The notes beneath the pieces were generated by a model, which was not told where the DNA came from, did no database searches, and saw nothing but the letters and a program-made list of their open reading frames with translations. A stretch of 64,000 nt of DNA, taken from positions 1,829,756-1,893,755 of the forward strand of contig JASSKH010000020.1 of NCBI GenBank assembly GCA_031763025.1. Reading direction: 5' to 3'. How positions within the stretch are numbered: position 1 is the first letter of the stretch; each line of letters starts with the position of its first letter. This document shows positions 9,455 to 40,254 of the stretch, in pieces. The position numbers were made by a program, and so were the translations under genes. This stretch comes from Macrocystis pyrifera (lineage: Eukaryota; Sar; Phaeophyceae; Laminariales; Laminariaceae).

Positions 9455-9615
9455 TGTCACGAGCTAGATCTTTCAAGGCAGACATTTTTCCGACCTTTAA
9501 GGTATGATCTACAGGTCATGTTGCCGGGGGTGAGACCCGCACAATCTGCAGGGTCTGTGAAGCACATGATTCTTGGGTTGGATCTGTACTATGCAGATCC
9601 CGCACAACCTCTTAC
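9455..9615 (+). repeat. interspersed repeat R6, copy 2
   Basis: Copy of 5,408-5,612, with TTGGGTTGGATCTGTACTAT and the same closing GCACAACCTC. It lies just upstream, relative to GT10 transcription, of exon a. Confidence 0.55.
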
Positions 9616-9639
9616 GTTAAACAGCAAATAAAACCGGGA

Positions 9640-9918
9640 AAAAAAAAAAAAAAAAACGAAAAAAAAACGAGCGAAAGTGATCACATCATACATAACACAA
9701 ACAAGATAGCGAATAACGAAAACGGGAGCGACAGCGATATAAAACGAAGCCCAAAACAACGAAACACAAAAAACGCAAAAAAACGCAAAGACACAGAGAC
9801 ACGAAACACAAAACACAAAAAGCACAGAACATAGAACTAAAAAAAAAAAAAGGGGGGGGGGGGGGGGGGGGGGGGGAGAAGGAAAAGGGGGGGGAATATT
9901 GCGAGAGAAAAAAAACAC
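9640..9918. repeat. A-rich tract ending in a poly-G run
   Basis: About 200 bases of A-rich ACGAAA-type sequence are followed by A11-G25 at 9841-9876 and GGGG-rich sequence. Low complexity only. Confidence 0.7.
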
Positions 9919-10490
9919 GTGCCAGCATATGTATATAGAATTTCACAAATCAACTTTGAGCACAGAATTACGAGCGAGCGTTAAACCTTAGTACCGAATC
10001 GGGACTGCGGTAATAAAGGAGTTAATTCAACACGCAGTGGCCGGGTAGAAAAGATGGCCGCAGGAGTGACGAAACGCTCTACCCACCTGCGTGCCAACTA
10101 GCTAGAGACTTATAGAAGCTGTGATCGAGAGTAAGTTTTTCGATGGATGACGTTTTCGTAGTGTTTCGGGGTCGGGAGCAGTGGCCGTAGCAGGCAAGCT
10201 ATTCAGGTATACATCCTTTTTGCCTCGTTCGCCAGTTCAAGCCTCTGCGCGAATCGACTACACCACCTCCTGGCATACTTTCGCGGGCGATAATCCTCTT
10301 TTCGCGGTCAACAACTATTACTTCAGAATTTGTACTCTCACGCTGCGGTCATTGTTCATGACCCTGGGTCGACCGTGGTCTACATTTACGTTCGTGTGCT
10401 ACGGCTGCTACCACTGCCACTGCCACAGCCACTACTACTACTACAACTACTACTTCTACTACTACTACTACTACTACTGCTGCCAATATA
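9919..10490. other. unassigned sequence with TAC repeat
   Basis: I see no supportable exon here. A TAC/CTAC microsatellite occupies about 10,425-10,478 and abuts the A1 repeat of the next element. Confidence 0.4.
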
Positions 10491-10748
10491 AAGCGTAGTA
10501 TATCTTAAGTTCGCGTTGGATGCCTGCTTAGTTCACAACCGACGGAATTTAATATTTATAGACATGGGCTCTACCGACGGAAAACTAAATGGCTTGGTTT
10601 GTTCAGAGGCAGAGAGAACAGAATAACAGCCAAAATCGTTCCGTGCCCCCTCCTAGCTTCTCGTGATTGCTGCACGAGTAGAGCAAGGCACTGCTCGCCG
10701 CCGATTGATAGGCCTAGACGCTAGGCCTACTGTTGTGGTTTCCGCTGT
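10491..10748 (+). repeat. split direct repeat A1
   Basis: It opens AAGCGTAGTATATCTTAAG and shares CACAACCGACGGAATTTA, GGGCTCTACCGACGGAAA, GTGCCCCCTCCTAGCTT and GCCGATTGATAGGCC with A2. Similarity fades after GTGGTTTC. Confidence 0.75.
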
Positions 10749-11235
10749 AGATTATCTGTTGAGTTTCCTCTTCACGACAGCAGCAGCAGCAACAGCGGCG
10801 GTTGCCGGGCTGCAGCATGCAACGGCAGGACGAGCAGGGGCGACGCACGCTTTCCTGGCACGTGTGCGAGAGGCGCGCGAACGAAGCGAGGGTCAGGGAC
10901 GATCGGGGCTTCTAGACCTTGAACTCGATTACAATTGGGCGTCGACTCTGATGAACAATGACTCACAAGCCTGCCTCATGCGTCTGCAAGCATCGTTACC
11001 TCGATCGCTTGGGGCCGCCAGCCATGATTTTTCCCGCGATTTTTTTTTTGCCTTGGCCGGTTCGCTCCAGTGGACGGGTAAGAGTTGCATGTACATGCAT
11101 GGAGGTAGTACGGGTAGAACGACCCACTCGTATACACTTGGGGGCGCGTTTAATCGCTGTCCTTTCTGAACCCGCGAATTCGCGAATCGGCCGTTCACAG
11201 GAGGGAACACTGATAATATTCGGGGCAGCTTAGAC

Positions 11236-12146
11236 GGTCAACATTTCGGCCGGCGCTTATGGCACGTCGGAAGCGCTGGACGACCTCGACTTTCTGGCCT
11301 TCACACCGCGCGGCGGGGCAGGCATCACCCTTTCACTGGCACAACGCCTGAGCACTTTGGGGCACGCGATCGTTACGATCGCGTGCCGCGGGCTCCCACA
11401 AGATGGCGCGGACCTCCATGTGGCGCTCGCTCGCTTGGAGGCGCTTGGCCTAGGCTTCAGCGCGGGGGATACGACCCTCAACGACCACGTTATGGAGCGA
11501 TTTGCGGTCGCCGATCGCCCGGTGAACCGGGCCAGGCTGATAGCTTCGGTCACCAAAGATCTCGAGACCTTCACGCTCGACCTGCGCGGTATCTCCGACT
11601 CCTGCGGCTACGCTTGGGCCTAGCCCCCGCCGGTGGGGTCCTTCCCCGCCATTCCGGGACCGCACTGACCCAGTCTTTCCGGCTACGTCGCCCTCGGCAG
11701 CCTTATCAACGCCGAAGTCCAGCAACCTCGCCGTACCCTCCACCCTGGCGGCCGGCGCCGGGGGTGGCGAATGACGGCAGTGGGGAAAGACCCGCAGGTG
11801 CCGCTTCGGTGACACCTGTGTGTTCACCCACGTCGATCCCGCTCGCAAGACGGCCAGCGGCAAATACGTGCAAGGCGGCTACCGGCGGGGGGTCGGCCGA
11901 GAGCATCCGGGGAAACCCGGCCAAGAGGGCCAAGGGCAAGGGCAAGGCGGGCGCTGGGGGTGGCGGTGCAAGCAATGGGAGCAGCGGTGGCGGCAGCGGC
12001 GGAAGTGGCAGCGGCGGCAGTGGCAGCGGCAGAGGCAGCGGCAGAGGCAGTGCTCCTTGTAGCGGCAACAACGGCGGCAGCGGCAGCGGCAGCGGCAGCA
12101 GGGCGTCGAGCGGGGGGGGGCTCCACTCGCTCGGCGGCGCCCAAGG
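11236..12146 (+). other. gag-like GC-rich region of the tyrosine-recombinase element
   Basis: The first part encodes a compact, helix-rich-looking segment (with TLGHAIVTIACRGLPQDG) and the second a Gly/Ser-rich stretch (about 11,940-12,120) over a GGCAGC repeat. The position ahead of the recombinase suggests the first reading frame of the element, but I do not recognise a family. Treated as a fossil. Confidence 0.4.
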
Positions 12147-12178
12147 TTGACGAATAGGAGGACGGGCCTCGCCCCTCA

Positions 12179-13181
12179 GTGGGGGCGAGGCCGATCGTGC
12201 GGAAGCAGCAGCGCAAGATGCAAAGCTTGTACGTCCGGGGTCGGCGTCCGTTGGGAGCCCAGGTCTTGGGACCAGCGGGCGTCGCGCTATTCTCACGAGT
12301 GCTGGCGGCCAGCTCATCCGCCAGTCGGTTGCGCCGTGGTCTCAGCGAGCTCATACGCCAGTCTTCCCGCCTTGGACCGGTTTTTCGGGGGTTGATGAGG
12401 GTGGCTCTGTATTTTGACACGTTAGCCTCCAATACGGATAAGACCCAGGCGTTGCTTGAGTTCGTAGCGTGGTGTGCGTCCGAGGGCAACCAAGCCGGTA
12501 CTATTGTCAGTAAAACTATCAGCCGTGTCACACTTCCACCGCGAACGAAGTTGCCCACGTCGTCGCCGCTTGTCAAACGCGCAATGAAAGGGGTGGCACG
12601 GTCGCACGTTGCCGCCGGTACCCCCCAAAAATAAGTCGTTGCCCTATGTCATGGGACACCTTGTTGGGAGGGCAGGGCCTGGGCTTGTCTTGGGGGGCTG
12701 GGTGGTCGACTTCTTTGGCTGTAGTTGGCATCAGCCTATTTTTTTCATGCCGAAGTCCGACGAATTATTCGTCTCTTCGTCCGGAGTTGTACAATCCGTG
12801 CATTGCTTGACGAGGGGTGACATAGCGTCATTCGCGGGGAAGCAGCGGTTGACCTCGTTGCAGTGCTGGCATCAGGCCACCAGCATCGAGGTCCTGTTTC
12901 GAGGCCACAAAGGCGACCAGGCTCAGCGAGGATCGGTAATCGTGCGCACACGTGACGACGCCTTCGGGGCGCGTTCCGGGGTAGGAGCAGGCGGCGGTGA
13001 CGTCGCTCTCATGGTGGAGATGTTGTCGGGATATACGTTGCCGGAAAGCGCCCCACTGTCGTCGTATCGGTACGGTACGGAGGTCAGAGTGTGGGGGTAC
13101 GCGGAGGCCCTCGGGGCACTTCGCGAAGTGGTAGCGAAAGCAGGAATGCCAAGTGGAAGCGGAAGCAGGAGACGACTCTAG
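12179..13181 (+). other. tyrosine recombinase region, fossil
   Basis: The N-terminal part resembles the SAM-like core-binding domain of tyrosine recombinases (LLEFVAWCASEGNQAGTI, then VKRAMKGVAR). The C-terminal part has HCLTRGDIASFAG, IEVLFRGHKGDQ and RTRD, which resemble the catalytic domain of DIRS-group and Crypton recombinases. These enzymes cut and rejoin DNA at integration. The sequence carries a few breaks and is probably inactive. Confidence 0.6.
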
Positions 13182-13435
13182 CGAAGTCGGCCTCCACTCA
13201 TTGCGTATCGGCGAAAACACTACGGTGGCGGCCGGGGGGGGGGTGCCGTAGAGGGCGATCTGAGAGAAGGTCGAGGGAAGTCTTCAAAGTTTTCTTAGAC
13301 GTATATCCGCAATAACCCAGAGGACGCGGATATTGTATCTCGTAAACTAGCAGAGACGGGAAATGATAAGGCAGAGGCAGCCAGGCCAGGGTACTGTTTG
13401 GGGTTGAACACCGTAGTCGACGCGAGCTCGGAATT

Positions 13436-13660
13436 GGGGTATGTCAATGGCTTACTACTATTGGGGGTCTCGGTCGTCCAAGACTGCGTTTGTTAGAACC
13501 CCGGTCAGTCGGCTGGGAGGGGGTGAATTCCGGGTACTGGCAGCACGATAGGCAACGAGAGTCAGCGGTCGGTGTCGCGGCTCTCGTACCATGCCGGTGG
13601 ACCCCCCCCCCGACGTCGCAGAGAATAATAATAACATGACAATTAGAAGGATATACAACA
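13436..13660 (+). repeat. split direct repeat B1
   Basis: It shares GGGGTATGTCAATGG, GGGGGTCTCGGTCGTCCAAG and GTTAGAACCCCGGTCAGTCG with B2, through to GGATATACAACAAA, and directly abuts A2. Confidence 0.8.
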
Positions 13661-13915
13661 AAGCATAGTATCTCTAAGTTCCCGTGATGTCTATTTTGTT
13701 CACAACCGACGGAATTTACTATTTATAGTCAAGGGCTCTACCGACGGAAACTGAATGGCTTAATTTGTGCAGAGGCAGAGAGAAGAGAAGACCGGCCACA
13801 ATCGTCCCGTGCCCCCTCCTAGCTTATCGTGACAGGTGCACGAGTAGAGCACGGCACTGCTCGCTGCCGATTGATAGGCCGAGGAGCTAGGCCTATTGCT
13901 GTGGTTTCTCCCGCT
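13661..13915 (+). repeat. split direct repeat A2
   Basis: Copy of A1, beginning AAGCATAGTAT right after B1 ends in ACAACA. About 130 bp of single-copy sequence, with a TATTATATTTTTATTATT stretch, separate it from B2. Confidence 0.75.
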
Positions 13916-14043
13916 CACCCGCCCCTTTCTTCTTTCGAAGGTGGGTGGAACGGAGCGGCCACATGGTGCTGGCCACACCGTATTATATTTTTATTATTGT
14001 TTGTGCTTCACCGGTAGCGATTTGGGGCTCTCACTGGGGGAGC

Positions 14044-14270
14044 GGGGTATGTCAATGGTTTTCTATCATTGGGGGTCTCGGTCGTCCAAGACTGCGTTTG
14101 TTAGAACCCCGGTCAGTCGGCCGGGGGAAGGAAATCCCGGGTACTGGCAGCAAAATAGGCAGCGAGAGTCAGCGGCCGGCGTCGCGGCTCTCGTACCACG
14201 CCGGTGGACCCTCCCCCAGACGTTCCAGAAAAAAACAAATAACACGACAATTCGAAGGATATACAACAAA
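14044..14270 (+). repeat. split direct repeat B2
   Basis: Copy of B1 with the same ordered blocks, ending GGATATACAACAAA. It marks the right end of the element. Confidence 0.8.
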
Positions 14271-14916
14271 ATTAAACAACAGCTGTGATATCGAGGATAT
14301 CGTCGAACCTCTCGTATTTGCAAGCTGTGTATAATACTTCCATCTCGCGTACGACGGGTTTTGTGTGGCCTCATGGAGTATGTACATATGGTGTGCCAGG
14401 CACCAGGTATGAGGAAGACAAAGGAGCATCTTTGAGGGGCGTCGAGAAGCCGATGCGTTTGTTTGTTTGTTTTATCCTGTTTTTTTAAATCCCCACCAGA
14501 GATCTGGTGGCGCCATTGTTGGTGGCGATCGACGGACAAAACGAAAAACCTTCACTTTGATGACTCCTGAGTCGGCGGTTACCGTTTGTGCACGTTTCAT
14601 AATATATATAAGCTACACAAAAAGCGAAAACAAAAACGAGAGCAAGAGCGACTCTCTAAAGTCACAAACAAAAGCAATGAGGCGACAATAAGGGCACAAA
14701 CTCCGTACGTGTTGTTTTCGTTATACGTAACACGCAGCGACACGCAGCTTGAAATACTTACTTGCTTCAAAAGAATTTGAATCGAGATCGCACACAGCGG
14801 GAGTTTTTTCTTGTTCAAAATTTCTTGAAAAAAAATAAATAATACCCATGTATATACCGCGTGAGCGCAAAAACAAACTACATGCATGGTATACAGTAGA
14901 GGTGATCCCAAACCTT
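14271..14916. other. unassigned sequence
   Basis: No exon, terminal repeat or known element is visible. It contains a short hairpin (CACCAGAGATCTGGTG at about 14,493) and A-rich stretches. Confidence 0.3.
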
Positions 14917-15113
14917 TTATTAGGACTGCAGTCCCGTTTTGGAGACAAACCACTCAGATTTTAAGTATCACGGGGGTCCACAGTAAATAGGACCAAATAT
15001 TGTCAGTGAGAACGGGTAAATATACAGGTTTTCATGTAAACCATAGGTCCTATTAACTACGGACCCCCTCAATAGTTTCTCCTCAAAACGGGACGGCGGT
15101 CCTAAAAGAGTTG
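14917..15113. mobile_element. family B miniature element split by a family A insertion
   Basis: The left arm (TTAGGACTGCAGTCCCGTTT..TTTTAAG) and the right arm (TTTCTCCTCAAAACGGGAC..CCTAAAAG) are the halves of a family B element. Family A sits between them, flanked by TA on both sides. Confidence 0.75.
14968..15072. mobile_element. miniature element family A, nested copy
   Basis: A 105-bp near-palindrome with ends on the TTACGGGGGACCATAGTAAA theme (here CACGGGGGTCCACAGTAAAT). TA lies at both ends (14,966-14,967 and 15,073-15,074). Removing it together with one TA restores the family B sequence, so the target duplication is TA. Confidence 0.8.
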
Positions 15114-15428
15114 ACAGTAACCAGGACCTGTCAAATACACAAAAACTTATTATATTTCGGTATTTTACCAAGCATATCCGTGCCACCTGCACCACAACAC
15201 GCCCCCTCGGACGACGTTCAGCGGTGGGTTTCTCGACAACGGGTAGGGCGTACGTACCGAGTACGACCAGCGATGCGTCTATGCTCTAACCTCGACGACA
15301 CCTTTTTCCGAAGCCACCATTTTCGTTGTGTGTGCGGGTGTGCCCCCCCCTTGACGCATGTTTTTGAGGAAACCGAGCCGGGTCTGAAATTCGTCCCAGG
15401 GGGGTGTGTTGTCTTATCACCCTAGTGT

Positions 15429-15612
15429 GATGCGGTGTTTTGGTCCTCTACTACTACTACGTATGTTTCACCGAACAAAAAATATGTTTTGAGGCTCCTG
15501 GTCTTCGAGGAGCTGCTGCACAGAAACGTATATCCCACCCAAAAGCTGGCGAGACATAAAATCAAGACGAACGATCCCGTGGCCTCGGCTGTGCAACGAA
15601 TACTACTGTAAA
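15429..15612 (+). other. coding-like segment of unknown origin
   Basis: The frame ending at the TAA at 15,609-15,611 is open for about 55 codons with a protein-like composition (VLRLLVFEELLHRNVYPTQK). I cannot name a family and see no clear splice site. It could be a scrap of a DNA transposon. Confidence 0.25.
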
Positions 15613-20225: not shown

Positions 20226-20367
20226 GTACGCCAACGATCGGGGAGGACGCGGTTGGAGCGGAGCGTCACAGCAGTGGGGCACTGGAGGCAGAGGACCTGG
20301 CGGCAGAGGCGGCATAGGAAGGTATGGGGGCGGTCGTGCGCAAACAGTTGGGGGTAGGGGGAGAGGT

Positions 20368-22923
20368 TTGCCTTCGAACCCCGCTCCTCCCGGTGGCTAC
20401 GACTATTCCCGGTACCCCCGTCCAACTGGAAATCAGCCGCCGGTGCAGGGGGCTGATCCCAGGAGTCGGCAGCAGCCGTGGGCGCACTCATACGGTCAAG
20501 CCAATATCACCGCCGCCGCCGCCACTGCCGCCGTCGCCACCGCCAACGACGCCCCGTATGCTCATGATCCTGACGCTGCCGCCACTGCCGGGGACGGCAG
20601 CTACCACGACGATGACCACGGGCACTACTACGAGGAAGATCTGCAGGTCGTGCCGTTCTTCCAAGAAGGCATGATACGGGTGGACCGTAGGTCTAAATCC
20701 GACGTCCAGGCGGTACCATGCTACTTCCTGAACAACGGGTACAACCATCCGTCGTCCGCTGTAAAGGTCATCAAGGCCTCGACGAGCGGCATCTGCTACA
20801 CCAGCGACGTGGTGTGGACGGTCCCGCGTGCGCCCATCATGCCCGTGCCGGCGCCGCTGGACGCGGGGGGTTCAGGGTACGCCGCCGCGCCGGCAATACC
20901 GGGTTTCAGAATTACGTACGAGCCACCGCCGCTTCAGTCACCGCAACCGCCGCTTCAGCCGCCGCCACCGCCGCTTCAGCCACCGCCGCCGGAGCCGCGA
21001 CGGATATCCGGCCGTACCCGTTCGAGGACGGTTCAGTTCTCCGCCACACCGGACGTTCGGCGCTCAGCAACTCCAGAGGGGCCACCCCCGCCGTCGCCAG
21101 TAAGCCGCGACCAAGGCCTTCACCATAGCGTCGGAGTTCTGTCAATGATGGACAAGGCGGCGTTGTTGTCGATGTTCGATACACGGGAGGCCGTCGACCC
21201 AAGTCGCCGCAAGGAGCCGATGAGTGGAAACCGCGAGGAAACATCGCCTAGAGGGGGGGCCCCCGGGGGGTTACCGTGTGCGTTCGCGACACGGCTTGCC
21301 ACTCGGGAGGACATCGACAACACCGTGAGGAACCAGCGGCCGCCCTACAAGCCTCCGGATTTGCCGCAATGCTACGCCTCTGACCTCAAGGTCCCACGAA
21401 GCCACAAGGAGGCCATGCGGTCGGAGTACGCTCATCTTTGGGAGGACTCGACGGGGCAGGAGTTTTAAGGATTGCTGGATGCGGGGACGTTTGAGCCAGT
21501 ATAGCAACCAGTGGACAACTACATCAACGCAATGTGGGTGTTTGACTGGAAGCCTGATGAGTAAGGTTGGCCCACAAAAACTAAGGCGAGACTAGTAGCG
21601 CGGGGGGATGAGCAGAGAGCTAACATTGATTTGGGGGAGTTGTTTGCGCCTACTGTTGCTGTTTCGAGTGTTCCGTTGTTGACAGCGATGGCGTGCGAAC
21701 TGGGTCTTGACTTGTGCCATTTTGACATTGAGCAGGCTTTCGTGCAATCTGACCTAGAGGAAAACGTATTCATGTGTTTGCCTCAGGGTTGCGGTGGACT
21801 GTCGGGGAATATAGTAAAACTGAACAAGAGTTCGTACGGTTTGAAGCAGGCCTCAAGGCAATGGCATGCACATCGTACTACGAGTCTGTTGACTTTAGGG
21901 TTTGCACAGTGCCTGGCAGATGCATGCGTGTTTCGTTTGATGGACGAGGGGCGAGTAGTGATGACTACAGTAGTGCATGTGGATGATATTTTTGCGGTAG
22001 GGGAGAGGGCAAGCTGTGACCAGTTTGGCAGGGACCTGGACCAAATGGTTCCGGTTCAGAACCTGGGAGAATTACGTTGGTATTCGGGGTGTTTTTACGA
22101 GAGGGGTTGGGAGAAGGGGGTGCTCACGATTTCACAGCAGACATTCGCTGAACAATTGGCGGATGAGTACGGGATAGAGTTTGGCAAGAGTGTTCCGATT
22201 CCTGTAGGCACGAAACTTGCGGAATTCGACAAGAATGAAGCACCGGGAGACTGGCCGTTTCGCGAGTTGGTAGGCTCACTTATGTGGCTATCAACCCAGA
22301 CTCGACCAGACATCTTTAATGCCGTAAGAGCAGTAGCAAGGTACTGCGCTTCACCAAAGTTAGTACACTGGAGGGCAGCACTTGGTATTTTAGGATATGT
22401 GAGACGGACTAGTTGCTTCGGGACTACTTTTCAGAGAGGTGCAACAGGGGGACTGAGCTTGCAGGTGTTTGCTGACGCGGAACACGCAAGCAAGGTGGCT
22501 GACAGAAGGTCAGTTTCAGGAGGATTGGTCATGTGTGGGGGTGTCTGCGTGTCTTGGTTTTCTAGGACTCAGAAGTGCGTCACACTCTCCACTACGGAGG
22601 CAGAGTACGTGGCGCTTGCTGACGTCATCAAGGAAGTGTTTTTGAGGCAGGTTTGGCGTTTCATGTTGCCTGAGGTGGGAATGCCCTGCATACCGGTGTT
22701 CGAGGATAATCAGGGTGCGGTGCAGCTTGGGCAGAACCCCATTACTAACTCCAACTCCAAGCACATTGACGTGCTACACCACTTCCTCGGGGAACTGGTT
22801 GCGAGAAAAGAGATATCGATTGTCCACGTACCATCCCCTTTTCAGCATGAGGATTTCCTAACCAAAGCGATATCGCGGGAGTCTTTCGAGTTTCATCGTA
22901 GCCTTGCGATGAATTTATGGTGA
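20368..22923 (+). other. copia pol remnants: integrase tail, reverse transcriptase, RNase H
   Basis: From about 20,690 to 20,830 the sequence resembles the C-terminal integrase region (GICYTSDVVWTV). A proline-rich linker follows. Reverse transcriptase begins near 21,410 (SEYAHLWEDSTGQEF) and continues through DIEQAFVQ, KSSYGLKQASRQW and VHVDDIF. RNase H includes DRRSVSGG, STTEAEYVALAD and EDNQGAV. The order is that of Ty1/copia pol. Described as a fossil only. Confidence 0.9.
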
Positions 22924-39291: not shown

Positions 39292-40083
39292 CTAGTCGGC
39301 CTGATGCCTTGCTACCCTGTCTGCCATCTCCTTACTTTCGTCCACCGCAGTTTCCCTTCTACTCCTGTTCCCACCCCACCCTGCATTCCCTTGGTCGGGT
39401 TTTCTGCCACTTCTCGTGTTGCCCGCCTTCCCTACATTCCCTTGGACACCACCCACGGCAGATGCACGGCGCTGCCTACTCAGCTCAGCCTCGTCCTCGT
39501 GCCACCTCACCATGAACCGTTCGGCTGCTTCGAGGACCCCCCGGTACCACCTCCCCGCCTTTTTTGCTGCAGTGGACCACAGCGCGGTCTCAACTTCAAA
39601 CACCAAGGGGGCAAGTTCCGTTGACCTTTCGGTGGCTCGGACCTCCCCAGGGTCTTCGATTATGCATCTTTGCAAAGAAACTGTCCGCCAGGTCTCGGGA
39701 TCTCCCCACCAGCCATCGTCCCGAACATCACCCGACTGGATAATCGCTCCTTGCTTTGCCGTGCCACCCCCCCCCGCAAAGAAGAGCTGCCGTTTACGGA
39801 TGGTCATTTCGATGCTCTCGCAACGTGTCATCTTGAGGGCCTTCGCGTACAAGAGGGTGGTATGGTCAGTAAGAAGTTGGCGCTGGAAGCCAATGGCTCG
39901 CATCAGGACTTGGTGGTGAGCCGTTCGAAGCATAGCAAAGTGTCCCGCTCTGAGGGTCCATGTCACACACCCGTACAGCAGGGTCCCAATCACCTTGGCC
40001 TTCAGCATTCGGACTTTCAGGATAAGGGGAGCGGTCGTACTATCATACAACTCCGGGCCGAATCGTTTGAGGCATGCTCGCAT
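39292..40083 (-). pseudogene. LINE A reverse transcriptase C-terminal part
   Basis: A 263-codon frame covers the thumb and C-terminal region (LYGCVTWTLRAGHFAMLRTA, MTIRKRQLFFAGG). It is separated from the palm domain frame by frame changes. It acts, if at all, in target-primed reverse transcription. Confidence 0.8.
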
Positions 40084-40254
40084 GAGACGGATCCGTTGGT
40101 CGATTTCGAGCGAGAGGTCAGCGCTTTCGTGGAAAATGCCGCCTGGGTATAAGAACTAGGCCGCCTGTTTATACCTCTGGCCTGTTGCATCGATGACGAG
40201 CGGTGGTGTGAGGGTTTTCTGGTCTGGTGTTCGTAGAAGCATTGTCTCTGTTTT

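What the first reader, a model, noticed from the sequence alone, without database searches (positions are those of the whole stretch)
10491..14270. Tyrosine-recombinase element with an A1-B1-A2-B2 split direct repeat
B1 abuts A2 directly, and B2 lies just beyond. This is the layout known from PAT and Ngaro elements. The interior carries a recombinase-like region and a gag-like GC-rich region but no visible reverse transcriptase. It may represent a recombinase-only or RT-less lineage, or a decayed member of a DIRS group.
Basis: partly seen in the sequence, partly recalled or inferred. Interest (0 to 1): 0.75.

Follow-up and report, generated by a model that had tools for sequence, protein, structure and literature searches.

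The report
Decayed RT-less kelp Ngaro-type retrotransposon
This is an old, broken copy of a jumping element of the Ngaro kind in a genome that matches giant kelp; it belongs to a branch that lost its copying enzyme in a single deletion and most likely spread by borrowing the proteins of intact relatives that share its ends.

Summary
Window 10493-14270 is a tyrosine-recombinase (YR) retrotransposon with A1-[interior]-B1-A2-B2 split direct repeats (A1/A2 86%, B1/B2 88%). The ends recur at unrelated sites of the same genome; 0 of 9 copies with both ends visible show a target duplication. The interior holds gag's C-terminal part and a frame-broken YR. Relatives with similar ends carry RT and YR; L037 carries gag, RT/RNase H and YR. 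The window's branch lost RT by one ~2-kb deletion between CAGGT repeats: the same junction, with point differences in some, is in all 19 RT-less copies read (three are one duplicated locus), and its pattern is at 160 places, against 86 for the RT-YR border. The window copy later also lost leader and gag N-terminus. Seven young copies (97.5-99.5% identical over 2 kb) all have a dead YR, so their spread was most likely driven in trans. 'RT-less lineage' and 'decayed member' are both right. A new member of a known kind.

The parts
10493..10742 (+). A1, left terminal repeat; element begins at GCGTAGTATATC
   Evidence: (86.1% to A2; same start in other A copies apart from point differences, unrelated left flanks)
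10743..11234 (+). remnant of the 5' leader; long copies continue here with about 5.5 kb (leader tandem repeats of about 158/355 bp plus gag N-terminus)
11234..11236 (+). internal deletion point of the window copy (relative to L030, positions 2765 and 8259 are adjacent)
   Evidence: L022 and L026 have different break points
11234..12150 (+). C-terminal gag remnant, frame broken, with Gly/Ser-rich tail
   Evidence: tblastn of L037 gag, matches 11234-11864; translation of the tail; zf-CCCH in L037 gag, E 1.1e-4
11799..11831 (+). CCCH zinc finger of gag (CRFGDTCVFTH)
   Evidence: translation; same motif in L037
12258..12266 (+). junction of the RT deletion (CAGGT)
12272..13413 (+). tyrosine recombinase remnant, frame broken, 25-bp insertion before the HxxR motif, in-frame stops
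12753..12755 (+). codon at the position of catalytic Arg I (lysine in this copy)
   Evidence: residue role recalled, not from a call
13195..13206 (+). HSLR (HxxR motif)
13302..13304 (+). presumed nucleophile tyrosine codon (TYIRNN)
   Evidence: role recalled
13436..13662 (+). B1, internal repeat
13663..13908 (+). A2, internal repeat, abutting B1
13909..14043 (+). spacer between A2 and B2
14044..14270 (+). B2, right terminal repeat; element ends at ACAACAAA

Best explanation
The window holds an old, internally deleted, non-autonomous copy of an Ngaro-type YR retrotransposon family (A1-[gag, RT/RNase H, YR]-B1-A2-B2). RT-bearing members are mostly 8.7-9.5 kb. In one ancestor the RT was lost by a ~2-kb deletion between two CAGGT repeats, and that RT-less form multiplied. 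The window copy belongs to this branch and later also lost part of the 5' leader and gag's N-terminus. Mechanism (inferred from anatomy and known YR retrotransposons): the RNA runs from A1 to B2; RT made by RT-bearing relatives copies it; the internal B1-A2 joint lets the ends be joined into a circle; the relatives' YR inserts the circle at a short site without target duplication. Shown here: the shared ends and unrelated flanks, the shared deletion junction, RT-bearing relatives with similar ends, the broken recombinase in the RT-less copies examined, and a recent set of copies whose recombinase is dead in the same way in each. Inferred: the circle, the trans supply of proteins, and the order of events.
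For: Termini. RT-bearing relatives: L037 has gag (zf-CCCH E 1.1e-4), a 774-aa RT/RNase H frame with YVDD and a 390-aa YR with HSLRIG and TYTRNN, with an A1 match 6.7 kb upstream of its RT-YR border. L040 and L042 run from RT through YR into B1-A2-B2, which is 87.9-88.6% identical to the window's. Of 40 L040-like B1-A2-B2 places, 21 have the RT-YR border pattern just upstream; of 40 L039-like A1 places, 19 have it within 10 kb. Of 40 window-like B1-A2-B2 places, 0 have that border and 24 have the deletion junction, although only 100 of 160 junction places were listed. Junction: 12 of 12 and 7 of 7 RT-less copies in which it was covered; 160 places for its pattern and 86 for the border pattern, reversed-pattern controls 0. 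Tree of the YR region: the seven RT+ copies form one group, support 1.000. Selection: median dN/dS of YR 0.78 (36 pairs of RT-less or unassigned copies) against 0.34 (20 RT+ pairs). Trans: L010-L016 have a stop at the presumed catalytic lysine and HSLG instead of HSLR in 7 of 7, yet are 97.5-99.5% identical over 2 kb, with seven different right flanks. In the four young copies compared, non-coding B1-A2-B2 is closer to RT+ copies (91.7-94.2%) than the YR coding DNA is (86.0-86.7%).
Against: Library support for YR and RT is below the curated cut-offs (PF00589 21.3 of 27.1 bits; RVT_1 15.6 of 29.6 bits), a piece with the RNase H part hit nothing, the six window frames tried hit nothing in Pfam, and no solved structure matched meaningfully. 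The border pattern marks only the 3' end of RT beside YR: some of its 86 places are RT-truncated (for example C58, 3.4 kb from A1 to B2), so it is not a count of complete RT genes. L038 and L039 lack about 115 aa of the RNase H part, and L041 has A1 joined near RT residue 371. The 0.78 median is below 1, so some selection on YR/gag after the RT loss is not excluded; L018 and L027, whose junction is not covered, were in that set. The greater likeness of the ends does not hold for every RT-less copy: L026 shows none (YR 88.0-88.5%, B1-A2-B2 87.9-89.1%) and the window copy little (86.4-87.5% and 87.9-89.2%). L037 itself shows only the first 88 nt of B. No circle or transcript was seen, and no empty site was examined. 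L028-L030 share their left flank and are one duplicated locus.
Confidence: 0.9

Rival explanations
1. A self-sufficient RT-less element (gag plus recombinase) that moves as DNA by its own YR, like a Crypton with borrowed ends.
For: dN/dS among RT-less copies is below 1 (0.78); HxxR and Tyr can still be read in several older copies.
Against: 14 of 14 RT-less copies whose YR was laid on L037 show in-frame stops; the young copies lack the HxxR arginine in 7 of 7; RT+ relatives with similar ends and open YR frames are present.
Confidence: 0.04
2. A plain relic: each RT-less copy decayed on its own after insertion, with no RT-less lineage.
For: The window copy is old (B1/B2 88%) and has a second deletion not seen in the other copies compared; other copies have their own internal deletions (L039, L041, L044).
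Against: The same deletion junction in 19 of 19 copies read and at 160 places by pattern, and a tree in which RT+ copies stand apart.
Confidence: 0.04
3. A PAT-like (DIRS) element rather than Ngaro.
For: PAT elements have the same split direct repeats (PMC4157794, passages); brown-algal Ectocarpus has both Ngaro and PAT-like families (PMC12477816, passages).
Against: No methyltransferase domain found by Pfam in the four L037 frames searched; but RT was also found only weakly, so a diverged domain could be missed.
Confidence: 0.15

Closest known systems
Ngaro retrotransposons (Cafeteria burkhardae; PMC8547959, section 11 read whole and other passages)
   Same: A1-[ORFs]-B1A2B2, gag - RT/RNase H - YR order as in the RT-bearing relatives here, YR with HxxR and Tyr, ORF-deleted variants.
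   Different: The window branch lacks RT; that paper describes variants lacking ORF1 (gag).
Ectocarpus DIRS/Ngaro and PAT-like families (PMC12477816, passages)
   Same: Same order of elements in another brown alga, abundant (15 Ngaro and 5 PAT-like families in its Table 1).
VIPER and its non-autonomous derivative SIRE (PMC6681497, passages)
   Same: A YR retrotransposon with split direct repeats and a shorter non-autonomous derivative.
   Different: SIRE is about 0.4 kb and consists mainly of the end regions; here gag and YR remnants and a leader are kept.
PAT elements (PMC4157794, passages)
   Same: A1-B1-A2-B2 repeats.
   Different: Described there as DIRS-group elements, a group defined by a putative methyltransferase domain, which was not found here.

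Membership tests
Ngaro | split direct repeats A1-[ORFs]-B1-A2-B2 with internal repeats downstream of YR | tested here: met
   also L038-L042
Ngaro | gag, RT/RNase H and YR encoded | tested here: not met
   window copy: RT deleted, gag and YR broken. Met in the RT-bearing relative L037 (RT and YR by motif and sub-threshold Pfam scores), so the window copy is filed as a non-autonomous derivative, not as a complete member
Ngaro | YR with HxxR and nucleophile Tyr | tested here: met
   L037-L042 and L044; Pfam PF00589 only below cut-off; both motifs still legible in the window copy but out of frame
Ngaro | no methyltransferase domain | tested here: inconclusive
   no such Pfam match in four L037 frames, but Pfam finds even the RT only weakly
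Ngaro | RT/RNase H and YR group with Ngaro references in a tree | not testable with these tools
   no reference sequences at hand
YR retrotransposons in general | no target site duplication | tested here: met
   0 of 9 copies have a repeat of 3 bp or more across the ends (by eye): window, L022, L026, L031, L036, L039 with full ends and the single-B forms L025, L027, L044; L035, whose B match is only a short stretch, was left out
PAT | methyltransferase domain with split direct repeats | tested here: inconclusive
   split repeats met; no methyltransferase match, with the limit just stated
DIRS1-like | inverted terminal repeats with internal complementary region | tested here: not met
   (pairs of 20 nt or more in 9500-15500): the repeats at the ends are direct; one 22-nt inverted pair (82%) lies inside A1 and A2, none joins the two ends
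Crypton | YR only, no gag or RT, no split direct repeats | tested here: not met
   gag remnant and split repeats present

The most novel reading that the evidence does not exclude
The ends would then be most of what RT and YR need in cis, which makes the cis requirements of this poorly studied group readable by comparison.
Probability: 0.65. Interest if true: 0.4.

Novelty: new member of a known kind. Interest (0 to 1): 0.3.

Why it matters
To my knowledge (recalled) YR retrotransposons are little studied and what they need in cis is mostly inferred. Here one genome holds many RT-bearing copies with open YR frames, an old RT-less branch, young RT-less copies with dead recombinase, single-B and B-A-B-A-B end variants, and private deletions, with nearly the same two end points. 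That set allows comparative mapping of the sequences needed for copying, circle joining and insertion. The main text of the kelp genome paper has no occurrence of DIRS or Ngaro (PMC10498591, term search), so this family may also be missing from current annotation (not checked).

Tried and rejected
Pfam on six of the window's own frames: no hit; replaced by comparison with intact relatives. Pfam on an RT frame of L035 and a gag frame of L030: no hit. NCBIfam on L037 YR and RT and a window YR piece: nothing useful. PDB by sequence with L037 YR and RT: chance matches only. IMG/VR for relatives of YR and RT: no confirmed locus. Rfam on the window: nothing at the gathering threshold. Structure prediction was not used: its description admits window proteins and loci from tools other than the one that gave L037, and the window's YR is broken. 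The first idea that the ~9.2-kb copies would carry RT was wrong: their extra ~5.5 kb is leader tandem repeats and gag N-terminus, without an RT match. L028-L030 were first taken as three young insertions; rejected, because they share a left flank. Indel counts come from overlapping alignment pieces and are not used. In the second tree (B1-A2-B2) the labels of L011, L013 and L014 were wrong (printed as RT+; they are RT-less), so only the first tree is used. Rows dropped before counts: 7 of 47 rows and 2 of 42 (overlapping or partial pieces of a place already counted). Of the 40 B1-A2-B2 places, 19 lack the border pattern and were left unassigned.
Full report
What is there. The element runs from window 10493 to 14270. 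Its left end is A1 (10493-10742). Its right end is B1 (13436-13662), A2 (13663-13908), a 135-bp spacer and B2 (14044-14270). A1/A2 are 86% and B1/B2 88% identical. In the copies fetched, A starts at GC[G/A]TAGTAT-like sequence and B ends at ...ACAACAAA, with point differences in a few, and the sequences outside are unrelated, except in L028-L030. Among nine copies with both ends visible (window, L022, L026, L031, L036, L039 with full ends; L025, L027, L044 with a single B), none has a direct repeat of 3 bp or more across the ends (by eye; L035, with only a short B match, left out). That is what recombinase-driven insertion predicts.

Host. The window lies in an assembly of 537,376,219 bases in 223 contigs. 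The published giant kelp (Macrocystis pyrifera) assembly has 537 Mb and 223 contigs (PMC10498591, abstract and passages). I take the host to be giant kelp on that match alone.

Interior. The six window frames tried have no Pfam match. Compared with proteins of the related locus L037, the window holds the C-terminal part of gag from 11234, with a CCCH finger (CRFGDTCVFTH), and a recombinase remnant at 12272-13413. The recombinase is broken by frame shifts, a 25-bp insertion and in-frame stops, but HSLR and TYIRNN can still be read; lysine stands at the position of the first catalytic arginine (the roles of these residues are recalled from the YR family).

RT-bearing relatives. L037 has three long frames in order: gag (zf-CCCH, E 1.1e-4), a 774-aa RT/RNase H frame with YVDD, and a 390-aa recombinase. 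Library support is below the curated cut-offs (RVT_1 E 0.014, PF00589 E 2.6e-4), so the assignments also rest on motifs (RNase H on recalled motifs only), gene order, and 34% identity to a second RT frame in L035 that is itself followed by a YR-like stretch. An A1 match lies 6.7 kb upstream of L037's RT-YR border, but L037 shows only the first 88 nt of B. L040 and L042 run from RT through YR into the same kind of B1-A2-B2 ends as the window's; L038 and L039 do so with about 115 aa of the RNase H part missing, and in L041 A1 is joined near RT residue 371. A search with the L040 ends gave 40 scored places at 95-100% identity, 21 of them with the RT-YR border pattern just upstream. A search with A1 and the next bases of L039 gave 40 places, 19 with that pattern within 10 kb; nine of the 19 also pair with a B1-A2-B2 place, seven at 8.7-9.5 kb and two at 3.4 and 5.2 kb. 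In one search about 40 of 150 scored YR places (hand count 41) have an open frame of 340-433 aa and no stop in the matched stretch. So RT-bearing, often intact and young copies with these ends exist.

The RT-less branch. In L037 the RT is bounded by two CAGGT repeats; the alignment gap is 2,052 bp. In 12 of 12 RT-less copies whose junction was covered (window, L021, L022, L026, L028, L029, L030, L031, L032, L036, L043, L045) the two sides meet at the same place, with point or small differences at CAGGT in L026, L031, L043 and L045, and likewise in 7 of 7 of L010-L016. L028-L030 share their left flank and count as one locus. A 37-nt pattern across the junction matches 160 places with up to 3 mismatches, its reversal none. 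A 38-nt pattern across the RT-YR border matches 86 places, 49 perfectly, its reversal none; it marks the 3' end of RT, not a whole RT. Of the 40 window-like B1-A2-B2 places, none has that border and 24 have the junction among the 100 junction places listed. In a tree of the recombinase region the seven RT+ copies form one group with support 1.000, and the window copy branches nearest to them (0.967) (L018 and L027 were labelled RT-less there although their junction is not covered).

The window copy's second deletion. Long RT-less copies (about 9.2 kb from A1 to B2 by the places) carry about 5.5 kb more at window 11235: a leader with tandem repeats of about 158 and 355 bp, and gag's N-terminus. 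Other short copies break elsewhere (L022, L026), and L039, L041 and L044 join A1 or its leader to parts of RT. Internal deletions that keep the ends are therefore frequent among the copies seen.

Is the RT-less branch driven in trans? The median pairwise dN/dS of YR is 0.78 for 36 pairs of RT-less or unassigned copies and 0.34 for RT+ pairs (21 pairs, 20 with dS above zero); for the gag C-terminus it is 0.76 (66 pairs of copies lacking RT or not covered at the junction). Selection on these genes was thus relaxed after RT loss, though not proved absent. The stronger test is L010-L016, the seven loci cut out beside the window's own: pairwise identity 97.5-99.5% over 2 kb, B1/B2 98-100%, seven different right flanks, yet in 7 of 7 the recombinase has a stop at the presumed catalytic lysine and glycine in place of the HxxR arginine. 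Copies that encode neither RT nor a working YR multiplied recently. In four of these copies B1-A2-B2, which has no known coding function, is 91.7-94.2% identical to three RT+ copies, while the recombinase DNA is 86.0-86.7% identical. The older L022, L031, L036 and L018 show a smaller excess, the window copy little (86.4-87.5% and 87.9-89.2%), and L026 none (88.0-88.5% and 87.9-89.1%). Ends kept alike are expected if RT+ proteins act on both; exchange by template switching would give the same picture.

How it works. From published anatomy of Ngaro-type elements and what is seen here, I infer: RNA from A1 to B2, copying by RT of an RT+ relative, joining of the ends through the B1-A2 joint, and insertion of the circle by the relative's YR. 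None of these steps was observed.

Known or new. The layout A1-[ORFs]-B1A2B2, isolated AB repeats and ORF1-deleted variants are described for Ngaro in Cafeteria (PMC8547959, section 11). A dependent derivative of a YR retrotransposon is described for VIPER as SIRE (PMC6681497, passages). Ectocarpus has Ngaro and PAT-like families (PMC12477816, passages). Passages of PMC3783388 (fungi) and PMC9210276 (Xenopus) mention truncated or degenerate elements. Searches for non-autonomous with DIRS or Ngaro found 29 and 19 papers, most of which I saw only as listings, so I make no claim of first report. I file the window copy as a decayed, RT-deleted derivative of an Ngaro-type element.

Noticed in passing
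window 20227-22923 (+): Two long frames (413 and 452 aa) that look like gag and pol of a Copia-type LTR retrotransposon; name from recalled motifs, no library search run.
   Followed up: no
window 39292-40155 (-): A 287-aa frame that looks like the tail of a LINE-type ORF; recalled resemblance only.
   Followed up: no
L018, L042; G000:C204:4467517-4469744; G000:C190:14538506-14539967: Right ends with extra A-B units (B-A-B-A-B), the counterpart of copies with a single B and no A2 (L025, L027, L044, L045).
   Followed up: partly
L028, L029, L030 (C223, C192, C191): Three nearly identical RT-less copies with the same left flank, two of them within 0.3 Mb of a contig end: a duplicated chromosome segment rather than three insertions.
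   Followed up: partly
L035:900-4300 (-): A second, distant RT and YR family (33-35% identity to L037 over most of the match) a few kb from a copy of the window family's A repeat.
   Followed up: partly
L030:3137-6526 and other long copies: Leader built of tandem repeats of about 158 and 355 bp; L037 has repeats of about 140 bp in its leader; function unknown.
   Followed up: no
window 14920-15105: Imperfect inverted repeat (38 nt, 79%, 110 nt apart) just right of the element, possibly the ends of a small DNA transposon.
   Followed up: no
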